64,000 nucleotides of DNA, taken from contig JAJFPB010000004.1 in NCBI GenBank assembly GCA_020881915.1, positions 1 through 64,000 of the forward strand, read 5' to 3'. The position numbers and the translations under genes are program-made. Position 1 is the stretch's first letter; each line of letters starts with the position of its first letter. The notes beneath the pieces were generated by a model. That model was not told the origin of the DNA. It searched no databases and worked only from the letters and a program-made list of their open reading frames with translations. The DNA is from Paramyrothecium sp. XJ0827 (taxonomy: Eukaryota; Ascomycota; Sordariomycetes; Hypocreales; Stachybotryaceae). Below are positions 7,483 through 64,000 of the stretch, one piece after another.

Positions 7483-7878
7483 TTTTACTTAACCCTTAAT
7501 CGGTGGCAATGAATGGTTGAAGTTGGATTACTTAAATGGAAATGGGTTATCTCTACCTTTATTATGGCTGGCTCTATCCCCTTAACATGGCCTCCTGGTC
7601 GTCGGGACCCACTCTCAACCTCACTTCATTTACTTGGGCCGAATTTCGGATGGCCACCAGAAATGCAATTCTGCTTCATTTTAAATAAAAACATACGTGC
7701 TTAGTCTCCAAGATCGTGGCTCTCTATTGATATATATATTATGTATTTTACTGCTGTCTAACCCAAAAACCATAGACGCCACTTTGCAAAAACCATGGAC
7801 GCCAGTTTCATTAGCGCGAAAATAAAATGTATGTAATTTCAAAAACCTTTGAGTCCATGGCACAAGTCATAAGTGATA
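7483..7878. other. Upstream flank of the helicase, no gene seen
   Basis: Normal composition. A short CCATGGACGCCA / CATAGACGCCA motif repeats at about 7,770 and 7,792. No open frame with recognisable content was found. This is presumably the helicase promoter and spacer. Confidence 0.5.
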
Positions 7879-31926: not shown

Positions 31927-33330
31927 TCACCTGAAATTGCTCATGGGGCGAGGACCGAGCCCACATTTCTCGTAGGCCATATCAATCATCTTCATCTGGG
32001 CAATGGAATCCTCTCCAGTGACCCAGAACTGGGTCTTGCGGCCCTTGACCTTGTTGACAAACTGCTCAAGCTGGTGCCTGAAGGACATCCAGTAGACCTC
32101 GCCGGGCAAGTTGGCGAACTCACCGCCAGCCTCCTCAAAGCTGTAAGCCTTCTGGGACTTGGCCTCTGTCCACTTCTTGACAATGGCGCCTTCCTTAGTG
32201 CGGATCTCGAAGTGGCTCTTGACATCTATGCGGTGCCAAATGGCGCCGTGGATCATATCGGCCAGTCTCAGCTCTCGCGTGTAATACTTGGTCTGACCCT
32301 CTGGCAGCGAAGCGTCGGTGACCTCAGCCTCTATAGTCTTTACCTCGACCCACGCCGCTTTGTACATGGTGCCTCCGCGCAGAGTACTTGCCGCTTCGCC
32401 GATGCGGCCGCCAGGGAAGCGGAACTTGGCATTGAAATCCCAGTCACATTTGTCATGGATGCCGTCAGTGTACGAGTTTGCCTCGCAGCTGATACATTCC
32501 TCCGGGTTGGCGCCGAAAATGAGGCGCAGGGCTGCATAGTTGTAAGTGCCCATGGACATCATGGAACCGCCGGAGAGCGGGTAGTTGAAGTGGATGTCCT
32601 TCTTGGAGGTGCCCCACCAGGGGATGCTGGAGTGCGAGACGACCGAGGCCACCTCTTCCGACTTGAACATGGTCATGAACAGCTGCCATGAGGGGTGAAA
32701 GCGGGAGTGGAAACCCTCGAGAAGGACGGGACCGTTGGGCTGAGACAGTTCGGGTAGGTTGAACAGGATCTCGGCCTCGCGTGAGTTGGACACGGACGGC
32801 TTCTCGACAAGAACGCTCTTGCCAGCACGGATGGCGCGCACAGCCCATTCGTAGTGCAGAGCGTTGGGCAGCGGAATGAAGACACAGTCAATCTCGGGGT
32901 CGTCGAGGATCTCTGTGAGTTTATGATGCGTTAGAGGTGAGCAAGCAGCAAGCGTGCAGGGCCATCTCCACGACAGGAAGAGGAGGCAGCGCCGGAGATG
33001 GAGACATACCCTGATACGAATCCCGGACTTCGGGAATTCCATTAGCCTTGGCAAATGCTTCTGCCCTGGTACGATCACGCGCGGCGACGGCCTTGACAAT
33101 GACTTCCGGATGCGATTTGGCGGGGATAATCAACGACATTGGCCTATTTCATACTTGAATTCCGATACGTTTGAGCGCAAACAGCGGAAATGCGATGCAT
33201 TCCGTACAATTGACGAGAGTACTTACGCGATATTGGCAGCGCCCAAGATGCCGAACTTCAGGGCACCCTCGACCTTGGGGGGCGTGGGAGGGTTGAAGGC
33301 CGTCCACACGCGACTGAGAAAAGCTGCCAT
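31927..33330 (-). CDS. Gfo/Idh/MocA-family NAD(P)-dependent dehydrogenase
   Basis: Three exons (33,330-33,227; 33,143-33,010; 32,912-31,927) with GT-AG introns and matching phases give 407 aa. The N-terminal Rossmann fold shows GILGAANIAP near residue 27. The family motif EKP lies at about 116-118 (LVEKPS), with Lys117 the expected catalytic lysine. The C-terminal half has the alpha/beta substrate domain (GGSMMSMGTYNYAALRLIF). Closest in feel to fungal D-xylose or dihydrodiol dehydrogenase-type members, which oxidise or reduce sugar or cyclic alcohol/ketone groups with NAD(P). It is the leftmost gene of the cluster, next to the RIP block. Its part in the pathway is inferred only from position: ketone/alcohol interconversion on the metabolite, or no role if it is a bystander. 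The start is set by the only upstream ATG giving a complete Rossmann strand. Confidence 0.85.
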
Positions 33331-34414
33331 CTTGTCACTCTGCCGGGGTCAGTAAGTACGGCGAAGCTGAAGCCGGCGAGGAGGCACCTACTGCTGAAAC
33401 TATTTGACCACTTGGTGTACTGTGCAAATATCCAGAAAACGGATTGTACGTTAATGCAACAGTTTAATGCGACAACGACATAAGAACAATCTTTACTGGA
33501 GCCTGGAGCCTGGAGCCTGGGCTTGGTAGGCTTATATGCGGCCAGGGTTGATTGTGTCCCTACGTTGGTTGCCGTGCTAGTTGGTCGTGGCATTGTCAAA
33601 AGCCCGGTGGGGTGGGCCTGGACCTGTCCACCTGCACTTCCTGCAGCTCGCGCAATGAAGCAGTGGCATATTAGCGAGGATGTCTGGTCATTCGCCCATC
33701 AGCTGATCGGCCATCCCATGTGCTACAATCTGAAGCTTGCTTCCAATCACCCTTGGGCATGCAGGCACCGGGCAGGGGTGTCAAAGCACGTTCGGCGATT
33801 TATTTGAGGTGTATGTGGGTTTCGCTACCCAAAACGTACATTAATCCATTTGGTCTCGACTGCTCGGACCAACAATCTCTCTTGTCGCAAAGTGTATTGC
33901 CAAAGCCAAAGGCCGTTAGGTAGACAGGCTTGTGGTCCCTTTGTTTCCTACCCCTGAGAACAAGCACAAATGACACGCCCGTAAGGGCCCGCTGCTCTTG
34001 CCGATACCCGTCTCTGACGCACTGTCTTCGTAGCTGTCATTGCCTGCCATCTAAATCCAATAGAGCCCTGTAGTCGCATCCCTGTCTAAACTTCTGTCCA
34101 ATCATACGGCCAAAGGGTGTGACTCAAACTCTTGGGAGTGGGGGTTGCCTGTACAGTCAGCTATTTTTTACTCCCGCCTCTCCCTCGCATCGTCCACCCC
34201 CCCTTCCCCCAACTCCACATCCTCCCAAGCTCCCTGCGCTGAGCCAAGCAGTGACCTCGCTCTTCTGTTGAACAATCTGCCCCAACCCTTGGAGCGCGGT
34301 TGGCCATTGGTCCAGAAAGGCGATTTCGATCTATGACACTTGGCACGGCTGACTAGTAACCAGCAAGGAGTACAACGGAGCCCTGGAAGTCACGGCTGGC
34401 TGCAAATAACGACC
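33331..34414. promoter_or_regulatory. Divergent intergenic region between dehydrogenase and SRPBCC genes
   Basis: About 1.1 kb separating a minus gene from a plus gene, so it must hold both promoters. A threefold GCCTGGA repeat lies at about 33,496-33,520 and a C-run near 34,198. No supported reading frame was found. Confidence 0.5.
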
Positions 34415-35026
34415 ATGGGTCCTATATTGAGCGTCTCAACCAAGATCGAAATCCAAGCATCGCCAACAGTTGTTCGCTCAGTGGTATGGACAATTCATCT
34501 CGCCCTTGCTTCAGCCCGTAATTAACCAAAGTCGCAAAGTTCATGAACTTTGCTGGCTACAAGCAGTGGCAGCCTAGCTGGAACATTGCCTCTAACGATG
34601 CGGAAAAGCAACCCCTCGATCTTATGGCAGGCGATCGCCTCGTTGTTAACATGGATGGAAAGGTGCACCAGCCTATCGTTGTGGTAAGCGCCGACTCCTC
34701 TACTCTTCTGATCCTCCTGCAAATGGCTTATTGAATGTATTGCTGAAATCTTTTTGTTTCCCTTTTTCTCGCTCTAGGAGAATTCACCTGCTGCATTCAA
34801 GTGGGAAGGCTCCTTTTTCGGTCTAGGCAGCGGCGTGCATCAATTCCATTTCAGCCCGAGCGAGGAAAACCCTGGAGGCACCACCTTTGTCCAAGGCGAG
34901 GACTTTCGTGGCATTTTGATAACGCTTTCTTCGCCCTGGTGGAAGTCGAAAGAGTTCGACATGTCACCCTGGGATAAGTTCAATTCGTGTCTGAAGCAGG
35001 AGGCCGAAAAGACCGGCCGTGCCTAA
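34415..35026 (+). CDS. Small SRPBCC-fold (START-like) protein, possible cyclase
   Basis: Three exons (34,415-34,483; 34,540-34,683; 34,778-35,026), phase 0 at both junctions, give 153 aa. The protein begins with the fold's typical first strand and helix (VSTKIEIQASPTVVRSVFMN, then FAGYKQWQPSW). It continues with strands such as KWEGSFFGLGSGVHQFHF and ends with a helix. The SRPBCC fold forms a deep hydrophobic pocket used by lipid-transfer proteins, aromatase/cyclases and some pericyclases. The family predicts binding of a hydrophobic ligand, not a particular reaction. The protein lacks a signal peptide and should be cytosolic. It is convergent with the FAD monooxygenase gene, 297 bp away. Placement in the cluster suggests action on the polyketide chain, perhaps ring closure (inference). 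Confidence 0.78.
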
Positions 35027-35323
35027 ATAGGGATACTAAATCGTTCCATAAACAGTTTCCAATGACCACTCGATCTATGAGGCCATCTGTCTCGCCCAAC
35101 ATGCCATTGGGCAATCTAGTGCGGTATTTTGCCAACTGTTTGCACGATGCCAGCCCCGGGGCCGCGTGTATACTGTATTTAACGCATGAAAGACAGGCCG
35201 ACTTCTGCTTAATAATTGATGTGTTTCCAATGTCGGAGCATGAAATTTAACTATCCAAACAGTATCGAACTATTGCAGCTACTACATTTGGCTTTGTAAA
35301 GCCTACTGAGCTTTGAAATACGT

Positions 35324-36745
35324 TCAAGCTCGGGTGACCTCTTGCAACAGAATAGGAATCTCGGGCAGTGGCTTCACCTGCTGGTTGGCCGTTGTGAACT
35401 TAGCCTTGGTGTTGCTGGTTCTCTGCGTGGAGTTTTCGTTTCGCGAGTTGCGCACCGCTTCGGCTCCGCGTTCCAGCATCTCCGCATTGTAGCCGGCCAC
35501 GGCAGCCTTGACAGCGTCGATGTCCTTGCCATCAAGGTTGCTGAGGATCTTGCTGAGGTTCATGGCGTCGATAAAGGAGTGATAGCCACCCTCGCCACGG
35601 AAGGGCGTCATGGCATGTGCCGAGTCGCCGAGGAGGACGACGCGTCCCTCAGGCAGGCTGGTGAGCTCGAGGTCGCGCCAGATGTGCGGCTCCTTCTTGA
35701 TGCCACTGGCAGGAGTCTGCTCGAAGAGACCTCGGAAGCGAGGGGGCATCTCGGCAACGAGCTTCATGACGTGCTCGCGCTTCTCCTCCTGCGTGGCAGT
35801 CTGTAGCCAATGGTCAGGTTTCTCGACATTGGGGTCCGGCTGCATGAGCATCCAGTAGTGACGCCCGGACTTGCCGTCGGGCAGCACGTGATGCAGGCCG
35901 CAGAAGTTCAAGAAGCCCATGCTGGGGCTCGCGTAGACGTAGGCGCTGTGACCAAGCTCAAGCTGCTGGACGAATGCGTCGCCTGACAGGGTCACCTCGC
36001 CGACGATAGCGGCAACGGGGACAAGCTTGAGGAGTTCTGACGCGGGCTTCTTCAACAGGCGTTCTCGGACTTTGCTACTGTTAGCTAACTTGCCCTCATT
36101 GTCATACACAGGGCCATGTGGTGGCATTCTCGACCTACCGGAGCTGTTGATGCCATCGGCACCAACCAGGATGTCACCGTGGGCCGTAGTTCCGTCCTCA
36201 AAGCTGACAGACACACCATCGTCATTGTGGTCAATCGTAACAACACGCTTGCCCCATTGGATTGGAACATTGGTTGACAGCCAGTCGCGGAGGCGATAGC
36301 GCTCCGCGCGCACAATCGGTGCCTCCGGAGTGTCCTATGAGGATCCAGAATCAGTGAAGGCTGAAAACAGAGGAAAACCTTGGTGTGATAGGAACTGACT
36401 TACTTCAACTCCCAGACGGCCGGGGCGGCCTGGGAAGTACAAGCCCATCTGGGCAGGCAAAGTCAGGGGTGCCAGGTGGTTCGTTGCCTCCTTCAAGTCG
36501 GCCATGTCCGAAGGGAAGCTTGCCTGGAGCTGGTCGACAATGCTAACACTGTGTCAACGCGACCGCCATAGGCGGCACAAGAACAGAGCCGGATGCACTC
36601 ACGTGTGGATGCCTATGGCCCAACCCTGAAAGCGAGAATCGGCGTTCTCATCGCGCTCGAAAACTTCGAATGAAACGCCTTGCTTGCGAAGGCACTGGGC
36701 CAGACTGAGGCCGCCTAACCCACCACCTACAATGAGAACGTGCAT
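35324..36745 (-). CDS. FAD-dependent monooxygenase (salicylate hydroxylase-like)
   Basis: Four exons (36,745-36,603; 36,542-36,404; 36,334-36,139; 36,069-35,324) give 407 aa with agreeing phases. The last intron ends in ...AGCAAAG, restoring GADGINSSVRERLL. Group A flavoprotein monooxygenase motifs are present: GGGLGGLSLAQCL at residues 7-19 (FAD ADP-binding), GADGINS in the middle (the DG motif), and LLGDSAHAMTPFRGEGG (the GD motif). Such enzymes use NADPH and O2 to hydroxylate, epoxidise or decarboxylatively oxidise aromatic or enol substrates. No membrane segment is seen. Divergent from the BBE-type oxidase with 859 bp between starts, so the two may be co-regulated. Likely a tailoring oxidase of the PKS-NRPS product; the substrate is unknown. 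Confidence 0.87.
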
Positions 36746-37604
36746 AATTCCAGGGGCCCGAGTTACAAAGGTTTGATTTGTAAAGACAGAAGTAGGTAAC
36801 AGTGAGTTGACTGGTGTGATTAATACAACAATCTCTTAGAAACTGGGAACAAATTGGGTTATGCAATCAAATTCAGCCGAGTCGAAGAGGATTGGGGTGC
36901 CATATAAAAGTATTGTGATCGTCTACGTAACATCAACTACATTTGATGACATTTTGGCTGGCAATGAAGCTATGGGCGTCTTGGCAGGGCGTGAGGCTGT
37001 CTCCCTTTCCTCTTTGGGTTGTGTTGATGGGCATGTCTAGATGCAAGGAGCAGGTATGCACGGTTGCCGAAAAGGCCGAACGCGTGCATCAGGAGACCTT
37101 GCAAGTTGCGCCGGGGTGTCATGCACCATCGGCGATTTCTGCAGGGGTGTAAGCCAAGACCAACTGTGCATCATGTCCTGGTTCTCGGTATGGGACGAAA
37201 GATCTGGCAAGGGAACATACTGCATGAAGCTTGGACCTGCAAAAAAACGCATCGGGTATGAGCACTGCGGCATGATAGCTCGACATGCTTGGCGATCTCT
37301 TCGTGATCCTTTCCCCCACTGAACCCCTATCATCGGCGACATCTGGATCCACCGTCATGGATGGCACAGATGTGGATGAAGAGTCTACACCCTTTCAGCA
37401 TCTCACTATCGGCTATATCCACCTTGATGGTGTTTCGCCTTTTTGTGGCACTGAATGGCTTGTATTCCTGGAATGATGATACGATAGCCAATGTCGAGCT
37501 CAATGGGTTGACCATCAAAAACGGTTTTGTCCTCCACAAGCCAAGCTGCCAAAGCCTTCATTGGATCGGATTGTTCACGTATGCATTGAGCGTCACGTTT
37601 CAAC
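36746..37604. promoter_or_regulatory. Shared promoter region, FAD monooxygenase and BBE-type oxidase
   Basis: 859 bp between two divergent starts. A CATATAAAAG box occurs at 36,900-36,909, far from either start. Short frames here lack family signals. Confidence 0.5.
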
Positions 37605-39189
37605 ATGTTGCGAATTTGCCTAGCCCTGCTGTCCGCCGTGGCATTGATGCATCCAAGCGTCCTTGCGGCGTCTCCATGCTCTCTGTGCTCCGCCGCCAAG
37701 GCTCATCTCCCGGAACAGGTCGCTTACGCGAGTGGTTCAGCGTATGTGGAGTCTCAAACAATCTACTATACCGCCTGGGAGAGAGGGCTATCACCTCACT
37801 GTGTCTTCACGCCCCGGAGTGCGGCCGATGTCTCTACTTTTGTCAAGTTGATTGCTGAGTTTGGCGCCCGTGAGGCTGATGGCAGCTACAAGCCCCAGTT
37901 TGCGGTACGATCCGGCGGTCATATGCTCTGGACTGGAGCGGCCAACATTGACGGAGGCATCACCGTCGATACTCGCCACTTGAATTCGGTCACTATTAGT
38001 GACGACAAGACCATGGTCTCGGTTGGGGGCGGGAGCGTGTGGAGTGACATATACCCACAACTTGTGCCTCACAACCTCACAGTCATCGGAGCCCGGGTTC
38101 CTGGCGTTGGAGTTGGCGGCTTTACATTAGGAGGTAAGGACTGTCATGAATTTCCTAAAAATTTAGAGCCTCTACTCACTCTCACAAGGTGGCAATAACT
38201 TTCTGTCACGCCGCCACGGATGGAGCTGCGACAACGTCTACGGCTACGAAGTGGTTCTCGCCAACGGGGAGATTGTCTACGCTACTTCATCGTCCCACCC
38301 CGACCTGTGGCTTGCACTTAAGGGCGGCTCGAACAACTTCGGTATCGTCACTCGTTTCGATGTCGCGGCGTACGAACTGGGCCTCATGTTGGGAGGCGTC
38401 ATTGCTTACGAGTACACCCAGAGCGTCTTGGATGCCCAAGCCCAGGCTTGGAGCAATTTCATGAAGCCTGCCAACTTTGACGATGCAGCGCAGGCTGCAA
38501 TCATCCTTGGCTTCACTGGCAATTTTTCTGTGGCAAACATGCTTTTCTACAGTGAGGAGGTGGCAAAGCCCGTGGTCTTTGATGGTTTTACATCCATTCC
38601 GTCGCTTCTCAACACGGTTACTCTTGAAAATGTGGACGAAACAGTTAAGAACTTTGGCGCTTCGCTGCCAGCAGTCGTAGACTAGTAAGTGCCATCTCAA
38701 AACCAAGTTGCAATCTCTAATCGTCCTCACAGCGCCGTTGAGCTGACCTTTACAACCCGCAACGGCGATGCCGCCTTTTACTCCAACTTGATCAAAATCT
38801 GGGAAAACAACATCCAAGTGCTTGCAGATACTGAGGGCATCAATGTCCAGTTCCTCATTCAGCCACTTCCAGTCACCAACGGTACCAATTCCCTCGGCAT
38901 TGACGCAGGCATCACCGACGCCATTCTCTACGAACTCGTGGCCGTGTACACAAACAAGGCCGATACTCAGCTCGTGCAGAGTACACTCGATGGCATAATA
39001 AGCCGACAGACGCAACTGGCCAAGGAATCTGGGCTATACATGCGTTTCCAGTATCTGAACTATGCCGGTGTGTCGCAAAACCCAATCGGCAACTACGGTA
39101 CAAATGCGACTCTTCAGGGCGTCAGTGCCAAGTATGATCCCGAAGGTTTGTTTCAGGATGCCATGCCTGGAGCTTTTAAGCTTTTCTAG
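37605..39189 (+). CDS. Secreted berberine-bridge-type FAD-linked oxidase
   Basis: Three exons (37,605-38,133; 38,189-38,684; 38,733-39,189) give 493 aa. A signal peptide is clear (MLRICLALLSAVALMHPSVL, then AAS). The FAD-binding (PCMH) domain carries VRSGGH with His106, the expected 8-alpha-histidyl FAD attachment, then VGGGSVWSDIYP and GVGVGGFTLGGGNNFLSRRHG. The C-terminal BBE domain has FQYLNYAG and KYDPEGLFQ. In fungal clusters such enzymes perform two-electron oxidations: alcohol to ketone, desaturation, or oxidative ring formation, with H2O2 as by-product. The signal peptide points to the secretory route, so it may act on a late intermediate outside the cytosol. The bicovalent cysteine could not be placed with certainty. 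The start fits the signal peptide. Confidence 0.9.
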
Positions 39190-39804
39190 GCCAGGGGATT
39201 GTTGGAAGAAGCATGTGTATGAATAATTTGGCTGCACATGCGGTTCTGATGACTCCACCTCACTGTCCCTACCCGGGAATGATTTCCTTCATAATGGCTT
39301 TTATTGTAGCTGTATTTAGTTCTGTATCGTTAAGAATGGCTTCTCTCCCGCATTCGCCTCTTGTGTCTATCCAAACGAATAGTGAAAGGTGTGAACACAT
39401 TCTTGTCTCCCTATCTGCATTCGTCAATCTCCACCAAGACACTTTGAAACTGCTCACCCATAAAACATAGGCAACTATCCAAATAGAACGAAAGCAGGGC
39501 CACTGGAAGTGATTTCATTTTTTGAGTTGCAATATCCAATCTACCAGGCCTCGCGTCACGTCTGGTATCTTGCTTGCAAACTGCAGAACCATTGGCAGCT
39601 AGTGAGCGCCGTTCCTAAGATACTACTACAATCGGCTGGGTATGTTCACAGTCTATGATTTGATGTTGCATGAACTTTTGACGAGTTGATGGGTTAAAAT
39701 AAGCTAGCTCTTTAGATAGAAAAACACAACTGATGGCACGGGCACCGCAACGTCCGACGTTCCAAACAAGTAGACCCTTCAAGGTAAGCAATTGGGACAC
39801 ATGT
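39190..39804. other. Convergent 3' spacer, BBE oxidase and 2OG oxygenase
   Basis: 615 bp between two converging 3' ends. No gene, repeat or RNA is recognised. Confidence 0.5.
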
Positions 39805-40852
39805 TCAAGTTTGTGCTTCGATTTCCTTTGGAAGCGAGAATTGGCTTCCAAATCTCTTAACGAGAAGCTTTCCAATTGTGTCTTTGTTGGGGTCATCCGG
39901 GTTCAGCGGATTGGTGGCATCGACGTCGCCGTGCCAGAATGTCGCGCACGACAGTCTCTCGCCATCGGCCTTGTTGATGACCCTGTGTTTGGCGCTTCGG
40001 TAGATGCCGCCGGACCAGCTCTGGATCATATCGCCACAATTGATGATGTAGACATCCTCCGTGGCCGGCACGGGCAGCCACTGCTTCGTCTGCTCGTGGA
40101 ACACCTCGAGGCCATCCTTGCCGGCCTGTTGAAGCAGGACGGTGACACCGCCAAAGTCCGTGTGTGGGCCAACGCCAAACTGTCCAGGGGCAGTGGTGTT
40201 GAAGGCAGGGTAGCGGATCATCTTCATCTGTACAATTGGTCGTGTGGCAAACTCGTTGATGATGGCAGGGTCGCGGCCGAGACCCAGAAGCAGGATCTCC
40301 CAGATGGTCCGACCGAGCCTGCCCGTCGCTTGATAGTAAGACCAAACTGGGTCGTGGAACTTTTCCGCGGGTAAATCAGGCCAGACATTGGGGCAGTGAA
40401 ATCCAGGAGGAATGACAACGGGCTCCTCCCGGCCGATGTAAAAGGCCTTTGGCATAGCGTTAGCAGTCGGTACAAGCGATACGTGGTGTTGCATTCGTAA
40501 GAGTACTTGTGTTTCAAAAAAAGTAAGGAAACCAGAATCATACCTCCTTTGCATCAGGCAGAGCATCACCCTTGCGAAGCGTCATGCCCGATTCCTCGTA
40601 ACCTCTGCGTCCTTTGTTGTTGAGAAATGACAGCTTGATCTTTTCCTCTCGGGGAAGGCTGAAGAACTCCTTCAAGGCTTTCAGCAAGCTCTTCTGCTCC
40701 TCCATGGTTATGCCATGTCCCTTGACTTGGAAAAAACCAAAGTTCTTGCAGGCTTCGCGGACTTCAGAGACAACCTTGGCCACATCAGTCGGGGACGATG
40801 GGTTCAGGTACGGGGCAAGGTCAATGAGTGGAAATTCGATCTGGTTCGCCAT
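39805..40852 (-). CDS. 2-oxoglutarate/Fe(II)-dependent oxygenase
   Basis: Two exons (40,852-40,544; 40,446-39,805) give 316 aa. The N-terminal DIOX_N block is typical (FPLIDLAPYL, EACKNFGFFQVKGHGI). The jelly-roll core carries the iron ligands HTD (His198, Asp200) and His257, and the 2-oxoglutarate-binding GERLS (Arg267, Ser269). The whole resembles the isopenicillin N synthase-like superfamily. Members hydroxylate, desaturate, epoxidise or rearrange substrates using O2 and 2-oxoglutarate. It is cytosolic. The gene is convergent with the BBE oxidase and lies upstream of the P450 fusion on the same strand. A TCGATTCGA element lies about 130 bp upstream of its start and also occurs upstream of the PKS-NRPS. 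The substrate is unknown. Confidence 0.9.
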
Positions 40853-41566: not shown

Positions 41567-44500
41567 CTAATAAACATCACTGATGTACTGGTCGTTCTTG
41601 AACTTCTCGAACCACTCAAACGCCTCGTCCGGACCCTTTCCCGTCTTCTCCATCCAGATGCGTCTCCACGTCTCGCCGCAGCTCCTCCCGAGCCGCCCCG
41701 CGCTGCCGCAGATATAGATCTTGGCACCGTTCTGGAGCAGGCCCCACAAGCGATCGCGCATCTCCCACATCATGTCAGGCACGTAGCGCGCCCCCTGGCC
41801 CCTGTCAGGCCTGGAGAAGCAGGGGACTGTCTCCACAACCCCCTCCTTCTCCCACAGCTCGAGCTCCGAGCGGTACAGGTAATCCTTGTCCGGGTGTCGG
41901 CAGCCGAAGAGGAGCAAGGCGGGCCCGAGGGGGCCTTTGCCTGTCTTTTTGACGATGGAGCGCTCTTGGACGAAGGCTCGCATGGGCGCGATTCCGGATC
42001 CGGCGGCCAGCATAACGATCGGGGTTTCAGGGCTAGTCGGGAGCTGGAACCTGACCTTGGTCGGGCGGACGAGGCACTGGATGGTGTTTCCAGGTAAGCG
42101 CGCGGCCAGGTAGGAGCTTGCCACGCCACAGAACACGCCGTGTCCACTTGTTGCGGGCGCCTCGAACACGTCAAAGGTGAGACTGGCAACTGGGCAGCCC
42201 TCGGATGTGCTTTCGGGGGCTAACGGGGTGGACGAGATGGAAAAGAGACGCGGTGTAAGTGGAAGTAGCATGTCGACGTAGACACCGAATGGCAACTTCA
42301 GGCCCGGCACCTCCTCAAGCACGTCGATAACGGAGTATCTCAGGTCCAGCAGTGTCTGATATGTCTTCTCGCTTTGCATCTTGTCCAACTGCGTGAGCTC
42401 CGCGCTGCCCTCGCCAGCCGCTGCAGCCAGCGTTCCAAGCTGCCGCTGGGTGATAGGCACGGCCAGCTCAACGCTGTGGCGCAGGAAGTGCTCGATGGCA
42501 ATGGGCTGCTTTGGCAAGAAGCTCTTGTTGCTCGACCGGACCACCATGAGGTCCTGCGCACCGAGGCTGAAGCGATTGAGAACACGGGAAATCACCTCGT
42601 CGGAGTTTTGCCCGTGCACGACGAGGTAGTCTCCCGTCCGGTACGAGGAGCCGGCCGGCAAGCGGATTTCGATGTGACGCTTCGAGTGCCCCACGGACGA
42701 GGCTGCCGATAGCTCCCGGTTGACGGTGACGACGCCAGTCTGCATCAGCTCTCCCTCGAGGAGCTGAGGTATCGTCTGCGACTTGTTCCTCTCGATATGG
42801 ACGTCCACGCCCACCTGCTCGGCCTGTGCCTGGCTGGCTCTACCCGAGATGCTCACACAAAGCTTCTCGCTCCATACTTCCCACGGACCTAGGAGATCCC
42901 GCTTGACATTGGCGAAGCCAGGCTCGAAGATGCGCTCCGCGCCGAGCTGCTCGAGCTTCTCATCGATAAGCCGGGGAACCTTGTGGTAGGTATGAACCCA
43001 GTCACTGTTCCCAGCACCAAACACGGTGAAATTGACGCCGGCCGGCAGCTTTTCGCCCGACTTGGCCAACTTCTCGATCCAGTTGACAAACTTGATGGCA
43101 TTGTACGGTGGCCTGCCCTCGTAGGATGGCGTAATTATGACACAAGGTCTGTCAGTCGGCAGCGATTCAATTGCCGAGTCCAGGTCTCGAATGTCGACAA
43201 CCTCGAGGCCGAATCCAGGGGCAGTACGGCATAGGGATTGGACCAGGCTCTCACAGGTGCCCTGATTTCCGCCAAACAAGACAGAAATGGGCCTACGAGA
43301 GTCCGATGATGAAATGACTCCGTTCAGCCGCGCCGGCTCGACCTGTTCGGGGATTAAAAGCGTCTTGCCGGCCTGCTCGGCGACCACTCCTCCAGGAATG
43401 CCCAGTGTCAGAGTCCGCCCAGGACGGCGACGCGCTCGGATCTTCAGGTTGACAGGCTTGACACCCATCTGGCCGGTCAGCTTGAGCTCGTAATCGGGAT
43501 CGACCTTCTCAAGGTTGAACTTTTGCAGCACCATGGCCATGCAGATCAGCATCTCCTGTTCTGCGAAGCCACGACCAATGCAGGCCCGCAGTCCATCGCC
43601 AAACTAAGATGGGACTCCATGTCAGCTTTGTTCAAGTTTGATACAAATTCATTCTTTCTGTCGGTATCTAGGCTGGGGTTTTGAAAGGAAGGGAGATGCA
43701 TAATAGACACTTACAGGCTTCCAAGCATTAGGAGGCATTTTTTCAAATTCGGCGTCGAGCATCCGTTCCGGGCGGAACTCATCGGTGTCGGCTCCCCAAA
43801 CATTGGGGTCGCGGTGGAAATGGCGCCAAATGCCCGAGACCATCTGTCCCTTTTTGATGAAGTACTTGCCTCCCAGGACTGTGTCTCGAGTAGAGAATCT
43901 GGTCAAGAGACTGACCGGATGCTGCATTCGCAAGGCCTCCTTCATACACGCATCGAGGTACTTGAGCTTGCGCAACATGTCATAGGTGACGACGCTGTCT
44001 CCGACAATCTCGTCGACCTCAGCCTGGGCCTTGCGAAGCGTCTCGGGGTTGCTGCATAGGTAGTAGTAGATGAAGCTGAGGGTGGAGCTGGTCGTCTCGT
44101 AGCCGCCGCCGAGTAAAGTGGGGATCTGATACAGGACATTTTCGAAACCCATCGTCTCGCCCGTCTCTCGGTCGACGCCGTGAATCATGACGTTGAGCAG
44201 GTCGTTGGCATCTGGCTTGGGGTTGTCAATGCGGTCTTGGACGATCCTTCGGCACAGATCGCGGATCTTGACAATATTTTCTTGGCGGTGCTGTTCATCC
44301 TTGTAATAATAGAAGCGGTTGAGGACATCGGGTCGGTTTGCTCGCCGGCCCGATTCAACAATGGCCTCCTTGAGTTCTTTTTGAAAGGGGTGAGGGTCCT
44401 CGGAGTAGAACTCGTTGAATCGGTATCCGTAAGCACAGAGGCCAATGGTGTCAAAGGTGAGACGCGACATGTCCTCAATAAGCTCGATCTCGTGGTCCGG

Positions 44501-45213
44501 CCCATAGCGATCCCACTTGAGGACTAGTTGCGCCGCAATATCCTGCCTGTTCCCATGGTAAGACGCGGAAGACTTTGTCAGCAGTGAACTCGCCATACAC
44601 GGGAAGGCAGCTAGTACTTACATGTCATCGAACATCTTGCTCAACCCTACAGGGCCTATATCAGAGTAGGTTAGACACCGTCTTCGTCACATCATTTCTA
44701 CCCGTTTAGAGCCAAGGAGAGTCTCATCATACCTAAAGCTGGCACTAGTAGCCTATGGGCCTTATTCCAGGCCTTTGACGTCGACTCGGCCGAGAAGAGA
44801 CCGTCACCAAATACAGCTCGCATCTCCTGGTGGAGACGGTGGGTGAATTTGATGAACCGACTGTCGTCGGCCATCTCGTTGACGAGCTCTCTGCTACCGA
44901 CAAAGACACGGGGATACGTCATGCCAAGATCCAGCTGAAATATGGGCGCATATTTGTCCATCAACTGCCAGTAGGTACGCACTGGGAGCACAGCGTCCAG
45001 GTCAGCGAGGTGGCCGACGAGGCCAAAATAGTGCTGATGCGGTGGTGACGGGATGGGGAGCATCTTGGTATGATCGATGATTTCCTCTGGGGAGTCGTCT
45101 AGCGTGGCATTTCCTTCAGCAGTGTCCATTGGGCACTTCGAAGTTGAACTGCTTTCGGCAATTTGCACCGGGCACTGCATCGTTGTGGTGACCCCCATTT
45201 TTGGCTGTAGCAA
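41567..45213 (-). CDS. Self-sufficient cytochrome P450/reductase fusion (CYP505 type)
   Basis: Four exons (45,213-44,733; 44,655-44,622; 44,546-43,715; 43,603-41,567) give 1,127 aa. Residues 1 to about 480 form the P450: GGGYETTSS in helix I, KEALR (ExxR), FRPERML, and the heme loop FGDGLRACIGRG with Cys457. A linker leads to the flavodoxin domain (LFGGNQGTCESL near 557-570; VFGAGNSDW). A ferredoxin-reductase part follows: RLFSISSTPL for FAD, GHGVFCGVASSYLA, AAGSGIAPMRAF and IYICGS for NADPH. There is no membrane anchor, as usual for CYP505 (P450foxy/BM3-like) enzymes. Known members hydroxylate fatty acyl chains near the omega end, and some act in polyketide pathways such as fumonisin. Here it probably oxidises the reduced polyketide chain (inference). 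The second exon is only 34 bp but restores GPVGLSKMFDDMQD. The start is the first ATG. Confidence 0.92.
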
Positions 45214-46093: not shown

Positions 46094-47301
46094 TTGCTTC
46101 GCACCATGCCGTCGGCCAATCCCGCGGCGAGCCTGCCCAAGACGCAGACCGCCATTGTTGCCCAAGGCCCCGGCCAGCTCGCCATTCAGCAGGACGTGCC
46201 CATGCCGGCCCTTGCGCCTGACATGGCCATAGTGAAGACGGCCGCTGTGGCCATCAACCCGGCCGACGCCAAGATGCTCGACTACAGCGCCGCCAGCGGC
46301 GCCATCATCGGCTACGACTTCGCTGGCACCATCGTGGCCCTCGGGGCCGACGCCCTCGCCGCGGGCCGCTTCGCTGTAGGCGACCGCGTCGCCGGTCTTG
46401 TCCACGGTATGAACAAGTTGCAGCCTGATGTGGGTGCCTTTTCAGAGTACGTTGGCGCCTGTGCCGACCTGCTACTGAAGATTCCCGACCACATGAGCTT
46501 CGAGCAAGGCGCCAGCTTCGGCACCGGTGTCGCGACGGCCTGTCTGTCCATGTTCAAGGAGCTGGGCGTGCCTGCGTCCCTCGAGCAGCTAAGCAAGGGC
46601 GAGCCTGCTATTGGTGAGCAGCTCGAAGGCCGAGAGTTTGTTCTGGTAGCTGGCGGCAGTACTGCTACCGGTACTCGTGCTATCCAACTGTTAAAACTGT
46701 GAGTTGCTTTGATTGACACAGGACATTGTCAAGACACCAATGGATGACCTTTTGCTAACTTACATGTAGTGCTGGCCTCCGGCCCATCACAACATGCTCG
46801 CCGTCCAACTTCGACCTCGTCCTAAAGTTCGGCGCCGAGAAGGTGTTTGACTACCGGAGCCCAACCTGCGCCGCCGACATTCGCGAATACACCGGTAACG
46901 AGCTGGCCTACACCTTCGACTGCGTGACTCAAGCCGACACGACACAGTTGTGCTACTCGGCCATGGGTCGTGCCGGTGGCCGCTACGTTGCGCTGGAGCC
47001 ATTCCGAGATGCAATCGCCCAGACCCGTGACTTGACCATCGAGCCATCATGGGTCATGGTGCTCACCATCTTCGGCCGCCAGGTCGCCCTCGACGGTGAC
47101 TACGGCAGAGAGGCTCGTCCCAAAGATCGCGAGTTCGGTGCCAAGGCATTTGCAGCCGTTCAGGCGCTCCTAGATCGCGGCCTGATCGAAACCCACCCGG
47201 TCAAGCCTATGCCTGGAGGATGGGATGGCGTCGTCGAAGGTGTCGACATCATCCGCACACAAGCTCTATCTGGCCACAAGCTGGTTTATTCTGTAGCGTA
47301 A
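46094..47301 (+). CDS. Trans-acting enoylreductase of the PKS (LovC-like MDR)
   Basis: Two exons (46,094-46,698; 46,770-47,301) give 378 aa. A second in-frame ATG at 46,106 (MPSANPAAS) would give 374 aa and is equally plausible. This is a medium-chain dehydrogenase/reductase without zinc ligands. GYDFAGTIVALG is the substrate-domain strand, and VLVAGGSTATGTRAIQLLKLAG is the NADPH-binding loop with the STATGT signature of LovC/ApdC/TenC partners. These proteins supply the missing enoyl reduction to highly reducing PKSs and choose which double bonds are reduced. The neighbouring PKS-NRPS shows no working ER domain, so a partnership is strongly expected. The gene is convergent with the PKS-NRPS, about 2 kb away. 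Confidence 0.92.
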
Positions 47302-49345
47302 CAGATTTTGAACATTGAAGACGGGTCTTTACTTGTCCGGTGGAGGGAATTAGAGACCAGCCACGATCGTTTCTCTTGGAGAGTTTGGATGTGTTAGTAT
47401 ATGTATCCCTGTTGGGGATTTATGTTTGATATTGAAGAAATGTACTCTTCTCTCCAATTGTGTTCCAGCAATATCAATAGCTAGCGTTCGCACCAGCGCC
47501 GTATCTCTCAGGGCCTCCTGACATTTCCAGTTTCCCTCTCCACTAGTCTCTATTTTTTGGCAGCTTATTACTCTCCAGTTTGCCGAATTTGAAGCCGAAG
47601 ATGTTAAGTTCATGTTGTCGAGACCAAACGTAGATATAGATTTTGCACCCTGTTAGCGCATCGAACTGGCATCATCAATAGACAATATTGAGCATGCCAC
47701 TGGCAAGTTTGCTGGATGTGGTCGCATTCATCACGGTAACATTGTATTCATCGTAAAACCCTGAGACAAGACAACTTCCAAGGAAATCCTTTTGCATCCT
47801 GACCCAAGTACCATCGTAAAACCCTGAGACAAGACAACTTCCAAGGAAATCCTTTTGCATCCTGACCCAAGTACCGTACTTGGGTTGTTAAACATTCAAA
47901 ATACTGCTGCAGCCATACCTACACGATTGCAACCTTCGGAGTTGTCTATCCACAAGGCTAACTCCAGTGCTTCCTATTTGCTACTTGAGAGAAACAGAGG
48001 CGATGCGTACAGAGTGAAATCATGTGCTACTTATGTAGTGGTATCCTCTTTGGTCGAGTGCAACTCAATATGAACGAGGCATGTTCAACCGCACTAGTTA
48101 GCTCATGATCAAGGTTTGGCTGGTACCCCGTTTAGGCGGGCCTAGCCATGGGTTTGAGCTTCGGCTATACCGTTCGAGGCAGCGTGTCAAATATCCTATC
48201 GTCAACCGAGCAGTCAATTAGTTGGTTCGGATAGTCGAATAATCCAAGCTTGGCAAGGCTTTCGTTTGAGGATATGACAGTTGAAAAGGGTATAGATAGA
48301 GAAGAAAAGAACAAGAAATGATACCTAGTATAAGAGAAAGCAACATTTTCATGTTTGAAGTTTAAGAGTCAAGCGTGGGAGACCTAATGTGGTAATCATA
48401 GGACATCGACACTATTCTCGAACCTATCCACTTGTGCAGCTACTGACAACTTATCTCGAGACATGTTATGGTCTTGATGATGCATATAGCAGTAGGCCTT
48501 TCCCACAACACGATACTCGCTACCCATTCCTCCTAGAGTTTTCTGACGGCTTGCAAATTCCATTCTACCATAGAGTATGTTTTATTCTTAACCGACTAGA
48601 GTCAAGACTCGGTAGTTTCACCATTAATATAAGTTCTCTACATGGCGAACAAAAGCTGATTGGCGTTGCTTCCATGAAGTGCAAGTTTTCAGGTTCGATT
48701 GGAAAAGAGACCCGGACATTTGCAACCGGCTTAAGCATTGAAACTAGGACAGCAGAATGGAAATGGGTCTAGAAATTATTAGTTGTAAACTGAGTTTTGA
48801 TGAATCATCTCTTCAAGATGACACACATGTCATAATGGTAGACTTTTGGCAAGGTGATCACGTCGAAACGTTTAATGCCTCTTAAGTATGCTGTCTACAG
48901 GGTAGCCAGCTTCAGGATCCGTACTAAGCCTCCTGCCCCGAACACCATACATAAGTATGGATGCATACATATTATCTTGCTTGCTACCTTTACCAGTTAT
49001 AGCCTAAGAAATTCAATCAACTCGCCTTGTTAAGAAGATGGAAGAAATAAGACATCCGTAGTCAAGTTGGTGCTGAACCCCAACGAGAGAAAAGCGAATA
49101 GTCATTATGATGAACAAAAAGCGTAGGATTGACAATCTAACTACTACGCGTCTACTATGAGACCGATATAGAATCAAAACTCCTTAAACCCTTGCTGCAA
49201 AGCGCTAAATCCATAACATGAATGAAATGTCGCTAAACTCAAGCAGAAATCAAGATCGCATCCAGTAAACAGCAACAAAAGACATGACTAAACAGAAAAA
49301 AATACAATCCGACAAAAGGAAATTGACATTGGGAAACAGACGACG
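47302..49345. other. Convergent intergenic region, 2 kb
   Basis: This lies between the enoylreductase and PKS-NRPS 3' ends, unusually long for convergent cluster genes. It holds a 63-bp tandem duplication (listed separately). A 127-codon frame at 48,389-48,772 (starting MVIIGHRHYSRTYPL) has no recognisable family or coding bias and is not called as a gene. A lost cluster gene may once have been here, but no remnant was recognised. Confidence 0.5.
47749..47874. repeat. 63-bp perfect tandem duplication
   Basis: Two adjacent copies starting CATCGTAAAACCCTGAGACA and ending GACCCAAGTAC, at 47,749-47,811 and 47,812-47,874. The second copy runs into GTACTTGGG, making a small palindrome (CCCAAGTACCGTACTTGGG) at its right edge. 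No internal mismatch is visible, so it looks recent. Confidence 0.95.
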
Positions 49346-61300: not shown

Positions 61301-61642
61301 GTGGCCACCCCGTTCGAGGGCTTCGTACACTGTCTCGAGCAGCAGCCGTTGCTGCGGGTCGATGGAGTCAGCCTCGTTGGGGCTAATGTTAAAGAAGGCA
61401 GCGTCAAAGACGCGGACGTCCTCCTGAAGCAGGTACGCATGGCGGACGTTTGTAGTGCCGTGGTGGGTTCCATCCACATGGTAGTGGCCCTTGGTGTTAA
61501 AACGGTCCGGCGTGATCTCTTGGCAGACATCACGCGGCGTCTTGATCAGCTTCCACAGAGCTGAAGGCGAGCTCGCAGCGCCGGGGAATCGGCAGCCGCT
61601 GCCGACAATGGCGATAGGCTCGGATCCCTTGTTGTTGCTCAT
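49346..61642 (-). CDS. Hybrid highly reducing PKS-NRPS synthase
   Basis: Six exons (61,642-61,003; 60,941-60,303; 60,235-54,979; 54,908-54,187; 54,120-52,282; 52,218-49,346) with five GT-AG introns and consistent phases give 3,989 aa, the usual size. Order: KS 8-430 ([23 protein letters not shown]); AT 546-860 (GHSSG, Ser645); DH about 944-1,240 (His976 in [10 protein letters not shown], Asp1158); C-methyltransferase about 1,400-1,560 (LEIGAGTGG); KR about 2,122-2,310 (Tyr2267 in SNYAAANGY); ACP (Ser2450 in GVDSL); C about 2,588-3,010 (HHIIMDG, His2717); A about 3,050-3,550 ([17 protein letters not shown]); thiolation (Ser3608 in GGNSL); R-type reductase from 3,684 ([13 protein letters not shown]). 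No ER motif is seen, so the nearby trans-enoylreductase is needed. All catalytic residues look intact except the R domain, which has Tyr3830-IAT-Arg3834 where YxxxK is expected; release may be Dieckmann-type or impaired reduction. The A domain has Asn at the Asp235-equivalent. The product is unknown. Confidence 0.95.
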
Positions 61643-63130
61643 CTTGTCTAGATTGTGTATAGTCTTGTTGGAATGATGTATAGTAATGAGCGGTAAGTCC
61701 CCGTTGGATGTTGGATGTGTCGTGGTGCTGGAGCTAACACAGTCGTGTGGCTGAGTCTACGAGCGGGAGGCTTCTTAGTGTGTAAGGGAGCGTAGACTGG
61801 AGTTGTACAAGTTGTGTATCTGGATTGGGTTGAGTCGAATCGAAACTTAGAATTCTCGAGATGTAACTTGGGGTTAATATGTCAAATCACTTTCCCTTTG
61901 ACTTCCTCTACAAGGAGGCAAGGAGACAAGGAGGCCACGCCAGTGGAGTCAACACCGAACTCAAGCCCGGCTCCGCCCCGGCGCTTGGACAATTTGCTGT
62001 GAAGCATTCCGGCAATTCGGTATCTACAACGTGCCTCCAATCCATCGGCTAAGTCTCTGTCAGAAGATGAGCTTCCGCTCGGCACTCCGTCTGCCGATGC
62101 CAGGGTCAGATTCGAAAGCAAACAGCATACCCACGCTCTCCGTAGGATCAAACAACCGAGTTCGCCGAATCGTTAAAGCAGCCCTGTGTTACGAATCCTT
62201 ACGAACCCTGAGCCACACCCTTCCACGTGGCGCATGCGCATGCCTGCATTGCATCGGGTCCGTGCAGAAAGAGGCCGATGGGTGGGTTGCATCACCGAAA
62301 TACCTTGATCTTCGGCCATATAAACCCACATTTTTTGCTAGCATTCAACCCTGCATACTTGTCGCCGACTGGCCTATGCGTTCCTAACGCACAGACGCTG
62401 CAAGCCGTCTGCGGCTCGGTGGAGTATTGCGGTGAAAGTGGCTCGTCTTGTGATCGAAGCCCTTGCTTCCAGAAGATGCACCATGACGCGTATCTAGAAG
62501 CGGCAACTCAGCTCGTGATTGGTGGTGTCGCCAGGTGAAGCTCGCATCAGGCCAATCGTCTATATGGCGATATTCTGTGACACCCCTTCGCTACTACCGC
62601 TACCGTGTATCCGGGAAAAATGCTACCAGCCTTCCAGAAACCAGGGTCTAACCATGCATTGCCAGCAAGGAGTTAGCATACATCGCACTTTCTCGGAACC
62701 GGTGGGTAACCAATCTGACCCGTGATTGATCACCGACCGAACTGCTCCACAAAACCTTTGGTCCCCAATGATAAGAGTTGCTGCTGGTAGAGCCGGTTTA
62801 GCGAGATTCGGTTACAAAATTGTGTATATATGTACGCTCTATTCAACGAATCCAGGGGTTTAAAGCCGCAAAACTTTGATCATTCAAACATCGTAACTAA
62901 TTTGCATCGCTAATACATAAGGAGAACCAAATGACGACTGTCCTAGCCTCTATTGTTACACACGACGAGTAAACTCGAAGCTACTTGCCGAGCCAAGGTA
63001 CGTGCTCATTGCCATACTGCATAGACTTCTCACTCTTTCCAGCACTCCAAGATGTCCCGGGAGCGGCTCATCCAGGCCGTGGCTGGCTGGACGAAAACCC
63101 CGGTGGTCCTTTTCGAACCTCGGTCACTGA
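61643..63130. promoter_or_regulatory. PKS-NRPS promoter and spacer to the regulator gene
   Basis: About 1.5 kb between the PKS-NRPS start and the 3' end of the regulator gene, both on the minus strand. It carries the TCGAATCGA element at 61,835. Several short frames exist in both strands without family signals. A TATATATG-like A/T stretch lies at 62,823. Nothing else is recognised. Confidence 0.5.
61835..61843. promoter_or_regulatory. TCGAATCGA element upstream of the PKS-NRPS
   Basis: Lies 193 bp upstream of the start at 61,642 and is the reverse complement of the element upstream of the 2OG oxygenase. It could bind the cluster's Zn2Cys6-type regulator (inference). Confidence 0.35.
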
Positions 63131-64000
63131 TCAGACGCGAAGTGTTTGCAGTAGGCAAGCAATTCTATGTTGCACGTCCATCATCAACCGCGAGATGAAC
63201 TCCCGACTGGTGTCAATAGAAAGCTGTTGGCTCGAGTGCTGGGCGCTCGCGTGTTCGAATCCGTCTGTTGCAGGCGGCCAAGGCTGAGACGAGAGGTAAA
63301 GACTAACAGCTTGGTTTTGCCGATTGACCAGAAAGGAACATAATTGCACGACCATGACGGACCGAATGTCCGAAAGGCCATTGTTGTTGAATCCGTCAAC
63401 CTCCACGTGGCCTGGCGACAACACGGCGTTGAAAAGGTCTGCATCACGCTGCAAAGCCGTCAGCACGAAATCATATATTCTAAGCAGTTGTGTATGGCAC
63501 GCAATAAGCAAGTGACTAATGACAGTATTGGAATGTTGGCCGGACGCGCGTATGTGGCGCGGCCCCGGTGCCGCCTTTGACTCCGCAAAGATCATACCGT
63601 TAATCGAGTTCATTGACGGCGCCGAGGGGGGCTGGATGGAGTCCCACATGTCATGGCTCGGGTTGAGGTTGCGGAGAATGCCCAGGAGATCGCCGGAGGC
63701 TGAGAAGGCTCCACAGAGGACTCCACCGAGAGCGTTCGGCCCGGGTGGGGGACTCGAGAAGTCAACGCACGTCGGGGGCTTCATGTCGACCTGAGTTTCG
63801 ATGAGCCACGCCGCGACCATTTTGAAGACGTCGCCGTCCACGAGGAGACACGGTCTGCCCTGAGGGTCAACATTCAGCTGGTCTGACACCAAAACGGCCT
63901 CATGCAGAGCCTCGGTTGAGCGGTATAATTGACAAAGACGGATGCTTAGCTGGGACAGCTGGGCAATGCCCATGTCCGGGCAATGGCCTTGGTCAGAGGG
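63131..64000 (-). CDS. AflR-like fungal transcription factor, C-terminal part
   Basis: An open frame runs from the right window edge to a stop at 63,131. About 289 codons are visible and the start lies outside. The segment HLLIACHTQLLRIYDFVLTA, then GHVEVDGF, then VQLCSFLVNRQNQAVSLYL, resembles the C-terminal regulatory half of AflR-type Zn2Cys6 proteins, where a conserved C-x-x-x-L-L-x-x-Y-D helix occurs. The N-terminal zinc cluster that would prove the class is not in the window. If the call is right, this is the pathway-specific activator of the cluster, acting in the nucleus on promoters such as those of the PKS-NRPS and 2OG oxygenase. Part of the call rests on its position at the cluster edge. 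Confidence 0.65.
   Translation of the reverse strand, partial: PSDQGHCPDMGIAQLSQLSIRLCQLYRSTEALHEAVLVSDQLNVDPQGRPCLLVDGDVFKMVAAWLIETQVDMKPPTCVDFSSPPPGPNALGGVLCGAFSASGDLLGILRNLNPSHDMWDSIQPPSAPSMNSINGMIFAESKAAPGPRHIRASGQHSNTVISHLLIACHTQLLRIYDFVLTALQRDADLFNAVLSPGHVEVDGFNNNGLSDIRSVMVVQLCSFLVNRQNQAVSLYLSSQPWPPATDGFEHASAQHSSQQLSIDTSREFISRLMMDVQHRIACLLQTLRV

What the first reader, a model, noticed from the sequence alone, without database searches (positions are those of the whole stretch)
31927..64000. Orphan subtelomeric PKS-NRPS cluster with an unusual tailoring set
One PKS-NRPS and its trans-enoylreductase sit with a CYP505-type P450/reductase fusion, a 2OG/Fe(II) oxygenase, a secreted BBE oxidase, a group A FAD monooxygenase, an SRPBCC protein and a Gfo/Idh/MocA dehydrogenase. 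I recall no characterised tetramate, pyridone or pyrrolidinone pathway with this combination. A self-sufficient P450 beside a PKS-NRPS is especially uncommon. All genes look intact.
Basis: partly seen in the sequence, partly recalled or inferred. Interest (0 to 1): 0.8.

Follow-up and report, generated by a model that had tools for sequence, protein, structure and literature searches.

The report
Fungal tetronate gene cluster, known type
Near a chromosome end, this fungus carries an intact set of genes that most likely makes a tetronate (a ring built from malic acid, not from an amino acid), closely resembling a gene set already published from another mould, so the find is real but largely of a known kind.

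Summary
An apparently intact cluster at about 31.9-64.6 kb has a 3,989-aa PKS-NRPS, trans-enoylreductase, P450/reductase fusion, 2OG-Fe(II) oxygenase, BBE-type oxidase, group A FMO, SRPBCC and Gfo/Idh/MocA proteins, and a Zn2Cys6 regulator that runs past the window. The interpretation needs changing. The A domain has Asn where amino-acid-activating domains have Asp (position 235), in an aspartate-like pocket (NHDKFGSISK). That code is shared by 79 of 84 related hybrids; 36 of 36 longer NRPSs, and 4 of at least 5 other hybrids of this genome (the 4 sampled), have Asp. The 2OG enzyme's closest solved relative is TraH, a tetronate decarboxylase. I read a malate-derived acyltetronate pathway, not a tetramate or pyridone one. 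A very similar published set exists: the tho cluster of Aspergillus flavipes (December 2025) has PKS-NRPS, trans-ER, P450/CPR fusion, alpha-KG oxygenase, two FAD monooxygenases, oxidoreductase and regulator, and yields tetronates. A close P450/CPR relative shares a contig with at least 12 of the 84 hybrids. The nearest relative is Paramyrothecium foliicola (PKS-NRPS 96%). Product and most tailoring roles remain open.

The parts
31927..33330 (-). Gfo/Idh/MocA oxidoreductase, 407 aa, 3 exons (33227-33330, 33010-33143, 31927-32912)
   Evidence: splice sites; PF01408 E 5e-20; best PDB relative a sugar 3-ketoreductase, 85 bits
34415..35026 (+). SRPBCC (polyketide cyclase-like) protein, 153 aa, 3 exons (34415-34483, 34540-34683, 34778-35026)
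   Evidence: PF10604 E 1e-8
35324..36745 (-). Group A FAD monooxygenase, 430 aa, 3 exons
   Evidence: gene model; PF01494 E 7e-21; only distant PDB relatives (best 75 bits)
37605..39189 (+). BBE/VAO-type FAD oxidase, 493 aa, 3 exons; N-terminal hydrophobic segment (signal peptide by eye); flavin-linking His in RSGGH kept, the usual Cys absent (one covalent link expected)
   Evidence: PF01565; alignment read by eye; 90.7% to P. foliicola over its whole length
39805..40852 (-). 2OG-Fe(II) oxygenase, 316 aa, 2 exons; TraH-type
   Evidence: best PDB hit TraH 9ig3, 300 bits against 206 for TropC
41567..45198 (-). Self-sufficient P450/NADPH-P450 reductase fusion, about 1,119 aa, 4 exons (second exon about 3 codons short in my model)
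   Evidence: with its last exon as query the next best match in the genome is 40-44%
46106..47301 (+). trans-acting enoylreductase, 374 aa, 2 exons
   Evidence: LovC 3b6z best PDB hit, 270 bits
49346..61642 (-). PKS-NRPS, 3,989 aa, 6 exons: KS-AT-DH-MT-KR-ACP-C-A-T-R* (no ER domain found by Pfam)
   Evidence: 96.3% to P. foliicola over its whole length
63131..64000 (-). Zn2Cys6 regulator, one exon; its start lies outside the window at about 64609
   Evidence: PF00172 E 3e-6

Best explanation
This is a malate-using PKS-NRPS cluster that makes a 3-acyltetronic acid. The iterative PKS with its trans-ER builds a reduced, possibly C-methylated beta-ketoacyl chain. The A domain loads L-malate instead of an amino acid, and the C domain joins it through its hydroxyl as an ester. 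The terminal reductase-like domain closes the ring by Dieckmann condensation, releasing a 5-(carboxymethyl)-3-acyltetronate. The TraH-like 2OG oxygenase then removes the malate carboxyl oxidatively, leaving an exocyclic methylene. The P450/reductase fusion probably hydroxylates the acyl chain. BBE, FMO, SRPBCC and Gfo/Idh carry out later oxidation, ring closure and reduction in an order that cannot be read from sequence. Shown: domains, gene set, A-domain code, closest relatives. Inferred from relatives: malate, ester, Dieckmann release, decarboxylation. Guessed: P450 position and the later steps.
For: A-domain code NHDKFGSISK: Asn at 235 and Lys at 278 (Asp-type codes have Lys at 278 and Gly at 301; recalled). 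79 of 84 related fungal hybrids have the identical code and one more differs only by an alignment gap, while 36 of 36 longer NRPSs in the same hit list (one A domain each) have Asp235. Four other proteins of this genome with KS, KR, A and R parts in hybrid order all have Asp235; at least one more such gene (C10 about 1.434-1.445 Mb) was not sampled. 2OG: TraH is the best solved relative; position 99 reads Thr, which PMC13083874 gives as allowed (Q, S or T) in the TraH/ThnC clade but not in the hydroxylase and ring-expansion clades, where Gln is fully conserved. Lys at 191 and Phe at 214 also fit; D112 and K114 are kept but are common to all those clades. The gene set matches tho, whose thoE+thoB gave tetronates; the NMR given there (H2-5 to C-6, an acid or methyl ester) fits a CH2-carboxyl arm (my reading). 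PMC7421883 lists no Knoevenagelase, trans-ER, P450 and alpha-KG as the marks of its acyltetronic clade III-B. No alpha/beta-hydrolase was found among the gene models and the gap ORFs scanned. P. foliicola's annotation fuses P450/CPR and 2OG into one protein (P0121), as their adjacency here would suggest.
Against: No characterised family member (CaaA, TraA, ThnA, ThoE) could be aligned directly, as their sequences or papers were not held; the link goes through homologues and published descriptions. Substrate codes are predictors, not proof. In the TraH alignment the 2OG here has a lid loop 4 residues shorter, so N102, which touches the substrate carboxyl in TraH, has no counterpart; and changing Q99 of TraH to Ser mostly abolished decarboxylation of crustosic acid. 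The substrate, or even the reaction, may therefore differ from TraH's; the alignment in this loop is also uncertain. Co-expression of thoACDGHI with thoEB gave no further compounds, so the tailoring steps are unsupported even in the best-matching relative. Terrestric acid's P450 (TraB) is not described as a reductase fusion in the passages I read.
Confidence: 0.8

Rival explanations
1. Tetramate pathway: the A domain activates aspartate (or another amino acid) and Dieckmann closure gives a 3-acyltetramic acid.
For: The pocket is Asp-like apart from residue 235 (Asp code recalled). Most of the named product groups in PMC7421883 are tetramates, pyridones or pyrrolinones.
Against: Asp235 is missing in this protein and in 80 of 84 relatives, yet present in the 4 other hybrids sampled from the same genome. 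A four-member clade with Asp235 (DFDKFGSIAK) exists inside the family as a contrast. The closest published gene set gives tetronates.
Confidence: 0.11
2. Reductive release: the terminal R domain makes an aldehyde that is closed to a pyrrolinone or related ring.
For: The terminal domain keeps a glycine motif and the Tyr of the SDR triad; 25 of 84 relatives keep the Lys as well.
Against: The triad Lys is Arg here (GYIATR) and in 59 of 84 relatives; no Knoevenagelase-type hydrolase was found in the cluster.
Confidence: 0.06
3. Side question, not exclusive with the others: only PKS-NRPS, trans-ER, 2OG, P450/CPR and perhaps BBE belong to the pathway; FMO, SRPBCC and Gfo/Idh are neighbours.
For: Only PKS-NRPS, P450/CPR, BBE and (by annotation fusion) 2OG were shown to co-occur in other genomes. 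FMO, SRPBCC, Gfo/Idh and trans-ER were not searched for co-occurrence.
Against: The left edge is an AT-rich gene-poor stretch, so these genes sit inside the same island. The tho cluster also lists FAD monooxygenases and an oxidoreductase.
Confidence: 0.25

Closest known systems
tho cluster, Aspergillus flavipes LY1-5 (talactones; PMC12843353)
   Same: PKS-NRPS of the same domain order, trans-ER, bifunctional P450/CPR, alpha-KG oxygenase, FAD monooxygenases, oxidoreductase, regulator
   Different: tho lists an SDR (ThoI), not found here; an SRPBCC protein is not listed in tho. Whether ThoC/ThoH/ThoG are BBE, FMO and Gfo/Idh was not stated in what I read. Sequence identity not testable here.
tra cluster, Penicillium crustosum (viridicatic, crustosic and terrestric acids; PMC8648635, PMC13083874)
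   Same: PKS-NRPS plus ER make an acyltetronate; the TraH decarboxylase is the closest solved relative of the 2OG here
   Different: TraB is described as a P450 hydroxylase with no mention of a reductase fusion in the passages read; the 2OG here lacks part of TraH's lid loop; the wider tailoring set was not compared
thn cluster, Trichoderma harzianum (trihazones; Zhu 2021, known only through citing papers)
   Same: tetronates from a PKS-NRPS; ThnC decarboxylase. A hybrid from T. guizhouense (P0084), possibly the ThnA orthologue (inference), is 60.8% identical to the one here over its length
   Different: no P450/CPR named from a harzianum-group Trichoderma is among the 21 closest; gene list not seen
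CaaA, carlosic acid and agglomerin F, Aspergillus niger (Yang 2014, described in PMC5381763)
   Same: malate-activating PKS-NRPS with trans-ER, as described there
   Different: paper not held; sequence not compared
CYP102/CYP505-type self-sufficient P450s (BM3, SoP450)
   Same: P450 and reductase in one chain, aligned nearly over the whole length to SoP450 9wuc (672 bits)
   Different: part of a biosynthetic cluster; substrate unknown; CYP number not assigned

Membership tests
Acyltetronate (malate) PKS-NRPS, clade III-B of PMC7421883 | trans-ER present | tested here: met
   374-aa LovC relative
Acyltetronate (malate) PKS-NRPS, clade III-B of PMC7421883 | no Knoevenagelase (alpha/beta hydrolase) | tested here: met
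   none among the gene models or the 10 gap ORFs scanned; the other intergenic ORFs were screened only by coding score
Acyltetronate (malate) PKS-NRPS, clade III-B of PMC7421883 | alpha-KG oxygenase of the TraH/ThnC kind | tested here: met
   TraH best PDB hit; Thr99, Lys191, Phe214 fit the clade as reported, but the lid loop is shorter and N102 has no counterpart; activity not shown
Acyltetronate (malate) PKS-NRPS, clade III-B of PMC7421883 | P450 homologous to 'P450 (III)' | tested here: inconclusive
Acyltetronate (malate) PKS-NRPS, clade III-B of PMC7421883 | A domain without the amine-binding Asp235 | tested here: met
   Asn235; that this marks the family is my inference
Acyltetronate (malate) PKS-NRPS, clade III-B of PMC7421883 | groups with CaaA/TraA/ThnA in a tree | not testable with these tools
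   sequences not available; the tree was built with homologues of unknown product only
tho-type cluster | P450/CPR fusion, alpha-KG oxygenase, trans-ER, PKS-NRPS and regulator together | tested here: met
tho-type cluster | short-chain dehydrogenase (ThoI) | tested here: not met
   none among the gene models of 31.9-64.6 kb; nearest SDR-like prediction I saw is at contig 100.6 kb (by eye)
tho-type cluster | more than 60% identity gene by gene | not testable with these tools
Tetramate/pyridone PKS-NRPS | amino-acid-activating A domain (Asp235) | tested here: not met
   Asn235
Tetramate/pyridone PKS-NRPS | ring-expansion P450 (expandase; pyridones only) | not tested
   no expandase sequence at hand; the only P450 found is the reductase fusion
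Self-sufficient P450 (CYP102/CYP505 type) | heme, FMN and FAD/NADPH domains in one chain | tested here: met
   PF00067, PF00258, PF00667, PF00175

The most novel reading that the evidence does not exclude
The nine-gene set diverts a malate-derived tetronate into a scaffold not yet described: a self-sufficient P450 and a BBE oxidase oxidise the acyl chain, and the SRPBCC protein closes a further ring on the tetronate. In the same family, the four hybrids with DFDKFGSIAK would be a natural switch between hydroxy acid and amino acid (malate and aspartate), giving tetramates on an otherwise equal assembly line.
Probability: 0.25. Interest if true: 0.55.

Novelty: new member of a known kind. Interest (0 to 1): 0.3.

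Why it matters
The finding corrects a likely misassignment: a tetronate rather than a tetramate pathway. It offers a simple marker (Asn235 in place of Asp235, with Lys278) by which malate-using hybrids might be told from amino-acid-using ones. It also shows that a P450/reductase fusion recurs with such hybrids in at least a dozen genomes, and in the one published relative I could read its function is unassigned. If the later tailoring steps are worked out, the cluster may give a new tetronate structure, but the kind of pathway is known.

Tried and rejected
A first Pfam scan of 10 ORFs in the gaps found no SRPBCC gene, and a trial splice of two pieces gave none either. A first reading of the A-domain code had positions 299 and 301 out of register; corrected. 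I considered and set aside tetramate/aspartate use, reductive release, and a unique lineage-specific cluster (see rivals). Same-contig evidence supports but does not prove neighbourhood: several shared contigs are megabases long, and only Polytolypa (AJ80_03303/03306/03312), Zasmidium (PRZ48_008233/008234/008236) and Apiospora hydei (PG997_010137/010130) show tags within 9 of each other. The tree has weak nodes (0.0 to 0.74) between the family root and the 22-member group of the window's protein, so I draw nothing from its deep order. A literature search for the gene combination by name found nothing; the tho paper came from searching the predicted product class. Searches for Paramyrothecium or Myrothecium tetronates and for the malate code listed no such report in the held library.
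Full report
What is there. The window is the first 64 kb of a 5.6-Mb contig of a 51.8-Mb fungal genome. From the contig end inwards come ORFs with an OrsD-type domain and a DEAD helicase (3.7-7.5 kb), then an AT-rich stretch of about 23 kb. In the 4-kb bins from 8 to 32 kb the TA/AT ratio is 1.11-1.44 and (CA+TG)/(AC+GT) is 0.0-0.61, against 0.47-0.69 and 1.13-1.38 from 32 to 64 kb, as expected of repeat-induced point mutation (interpretation recalled). The cluster begins at 31.9 kb. I wrote a small gene finder trained on long ORFs of this genome and refined its output by eye. It gives nine genes: Gfo/Idh/MocA, SRPBCC, group A FMO, BBE oxidase, 2OG-Fe(II) oxygenase, P450/CPR fusion, trans-ER, PKS-NRPS and a Zn2Cys6 regulator whose start lies about 609 bases beyond the window. 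Pfam supports each. To the right lie an OPT-type transporter gene piece (about 68 kb) and a peptidase-like gene (70.7 kb) (names by eye), which I take as outside the cluster.

Are the genes intact? As far as sequence tells, yes. The PKS-NRPS model aligns end to end with a P. foliicola protein (96.3%, one 2-residue gap), the BBE at 90.7% and the 2OG at 96.8%; the P450/CPR aligns at 93.7% with a 3-residue shortfall at a tiny exon of my model. The catalytic motifs I searched for in KS, AT, DH, MT, KR, C and A domains and the carrier sites are present. The other five genes have open frames but were not compared with an orthologue. The organism is a close relative of Paramyrothecium foliicola (Stachybotryaceae; inference from identity).

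What the PKS-NRPS does. A homology search with the A-T-R part gave 1,304 hits among 1,632 scored candidates, 120 listed. Of these, 84 are shorter than 5,000 aa and are fungal-type hybrids by their domains; the other 36 are longer NRPSs, bacterial where named. The A-domain code, read in register with GrsA positions, is NHDKFGSISK here. It is identical in 79 of 84 hybrids, one more has an alignment gap, and 4 read DFDKFGSIAK; 36 of 36 longer NRPSs have Asp at position 235, one A domain each. I fetched the four best other matches of this genome: their codes are DAFTMAAICK, DLAVFGIISK, DMANIGSWGK and DLLAVAVITK, each with Asp235. All four have KS and KR matches upstream on the same strand, so they are hybrids; a fifth candidate (C10 about 1.434-1.445 Mb) was not sampled. 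Asp235 holds the amino group of amino-acid substrates, and Lys278 with Gly301 is typical of aspartate-type pockets (both recalled). An aspartate-like pocket without the amine anchor fits L-malate, the hydroxy analogue of aspartate. CaaA of A. niger is reported to activate malic acid, join it by an ester and release a tetronic acid by Dieckmann closure (passage in PMC5381763). The R-type domain has Tyr but Arg in place of the triad Lys, as in 59 of 84 relatives; 25 keep Lys. PMC7421883 (outline and sections 5 and 6 read) reports that no residue set was found that separates Dieckmann from reductase domains, so this is only suggestive.

The 2OG enzyme. Its best solved relative is TraH (300 bits, against 206 for TropC), the crustosic acid decarboxylase. 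PMC13083874 (passages) says that position 99 is Q, S or T in the TraH/ThnC clade but always Q in the hydroxylase and ring-expansion clades, that 191 is K/R and 214 Y/F, and that D112 and K114 are conserved in all clades. From the alignment the protein here has T, K and F at 99, 191 and 214, and keeps D112 and K114. This favours the decarboxylase clade. Against it: the lid loop here is 4 residues shorter, so TraH's N102, which contacts the substrate carboxyl, has no counterpart, and a Q99S change in TraH mostly abolished decarboxylation of crustosic acid. A different tetronate substrate is the likely reason, but a different reaction is not excluded. ThnC, another clade member, acts on a tetronate in the trihazone pathway (same source).

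The P450/CPR fusion and how common it is. It aligns nearly over its whole length with SoP450, a P450/CPR of known structure; with its last exon as query the next best match in the genome is 40-44%. All 12 lie in ranks 1-21, none in ranks 22-120. In three species the locus tags lie within 9 numbers of each other (Polytolypa hystricis, Zasmidium cellare, Apiospora hydei). So the fusion recurs with this PKS-NRPS family in several fungal classes (classes recalled), but for 72 of the 84 hybrids no such match was listed.

What is already published. The tho cluster of Aspergillus flavipes LY1-5 (PMC12843353; parts 1 and 2 of 5 and passages read) comprises ThoE (PKS-NRPS), ThoB (trans-ER), ThoA (bifunctional P450/reductase), ThoC and ThoH (FAD monooxygenases), ThoD (alpha-KG oxygenase), ThoF (regulator), ThoG (oxidoreductase) and ThoI (SDR). 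ThoE with ThoB gave ten tetronates, talactones A-J; adding thoACDGHI gave no further compounds. ThoE is stated to be 57.9% identical to ThnA. Differences from tho: no SDR found here, and an SRPBCC protein that tho does not list.

Proposed pathway. Steps 1-4 (chain, malate loading as ester, Dieckmann release, oxidative decarboxylation) are inferred from relatives. Hydroxylation of the acyl chain by the P450/CPR is a guess by analogy with TraB, which hydroxylates viridicatic acid before ring closure (passages of PMC8648635). For BBE, FMO, SRPBCC and Gfo/Idh only the reaction class can be named.

Limits. FMO, SRPBCC, Gfo/Idh and trans-ER were not tested for co-occurrence. The absence of reports on Paramyrothecium tetronates rests on searches (12 papers listed in each) of an open-access library that lacks most subscription journals.

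Noticed in passing
genome C12 about 1058513-1122868 (-), C2 about 1349618-1395154 (-), C12 887082-913904 (+): NRPS genes with uninterrupted reading frames of 24,978, 17,657 and 12,306 aa.
   Followed up: no
proteins P0102, P0111, P0112, P0113 (Madurella fahalii, Penicillium canescens twice, Lasiosphaeria ovina): Four relatives of the PKS-NRPS carry the A code DFDKFGSIAK instead of NHDKFGSISK and form one clade with support 1.0: a possible natural switch between malate and aspartate.
   Followed up: partly
window 8001-31000, with 16677-17339: AT-rich (6-38% GC in 2-kb bins), RIP-like gene-poor stretch with a relic matching the fungal rhodopsin domain.
   Followed up: partly
window 3698-7488: ORFs in different frames with an OrsD-type domain and a DEAD helicase near the contig end, resembling telomere-linked helicase genes (the resemblance is recalled).
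   Followed up: no
window 47749-47875: Perfect tandem duplication of 63 bp between the converging trans-ER and PKS-NRPS genes.
   Followed up: no
window 7875-8552: Tandem copies of a 267-bp unit (100% matches) and of a 55-bp unit where the AT-rich stretch begins.
   Followed up: no
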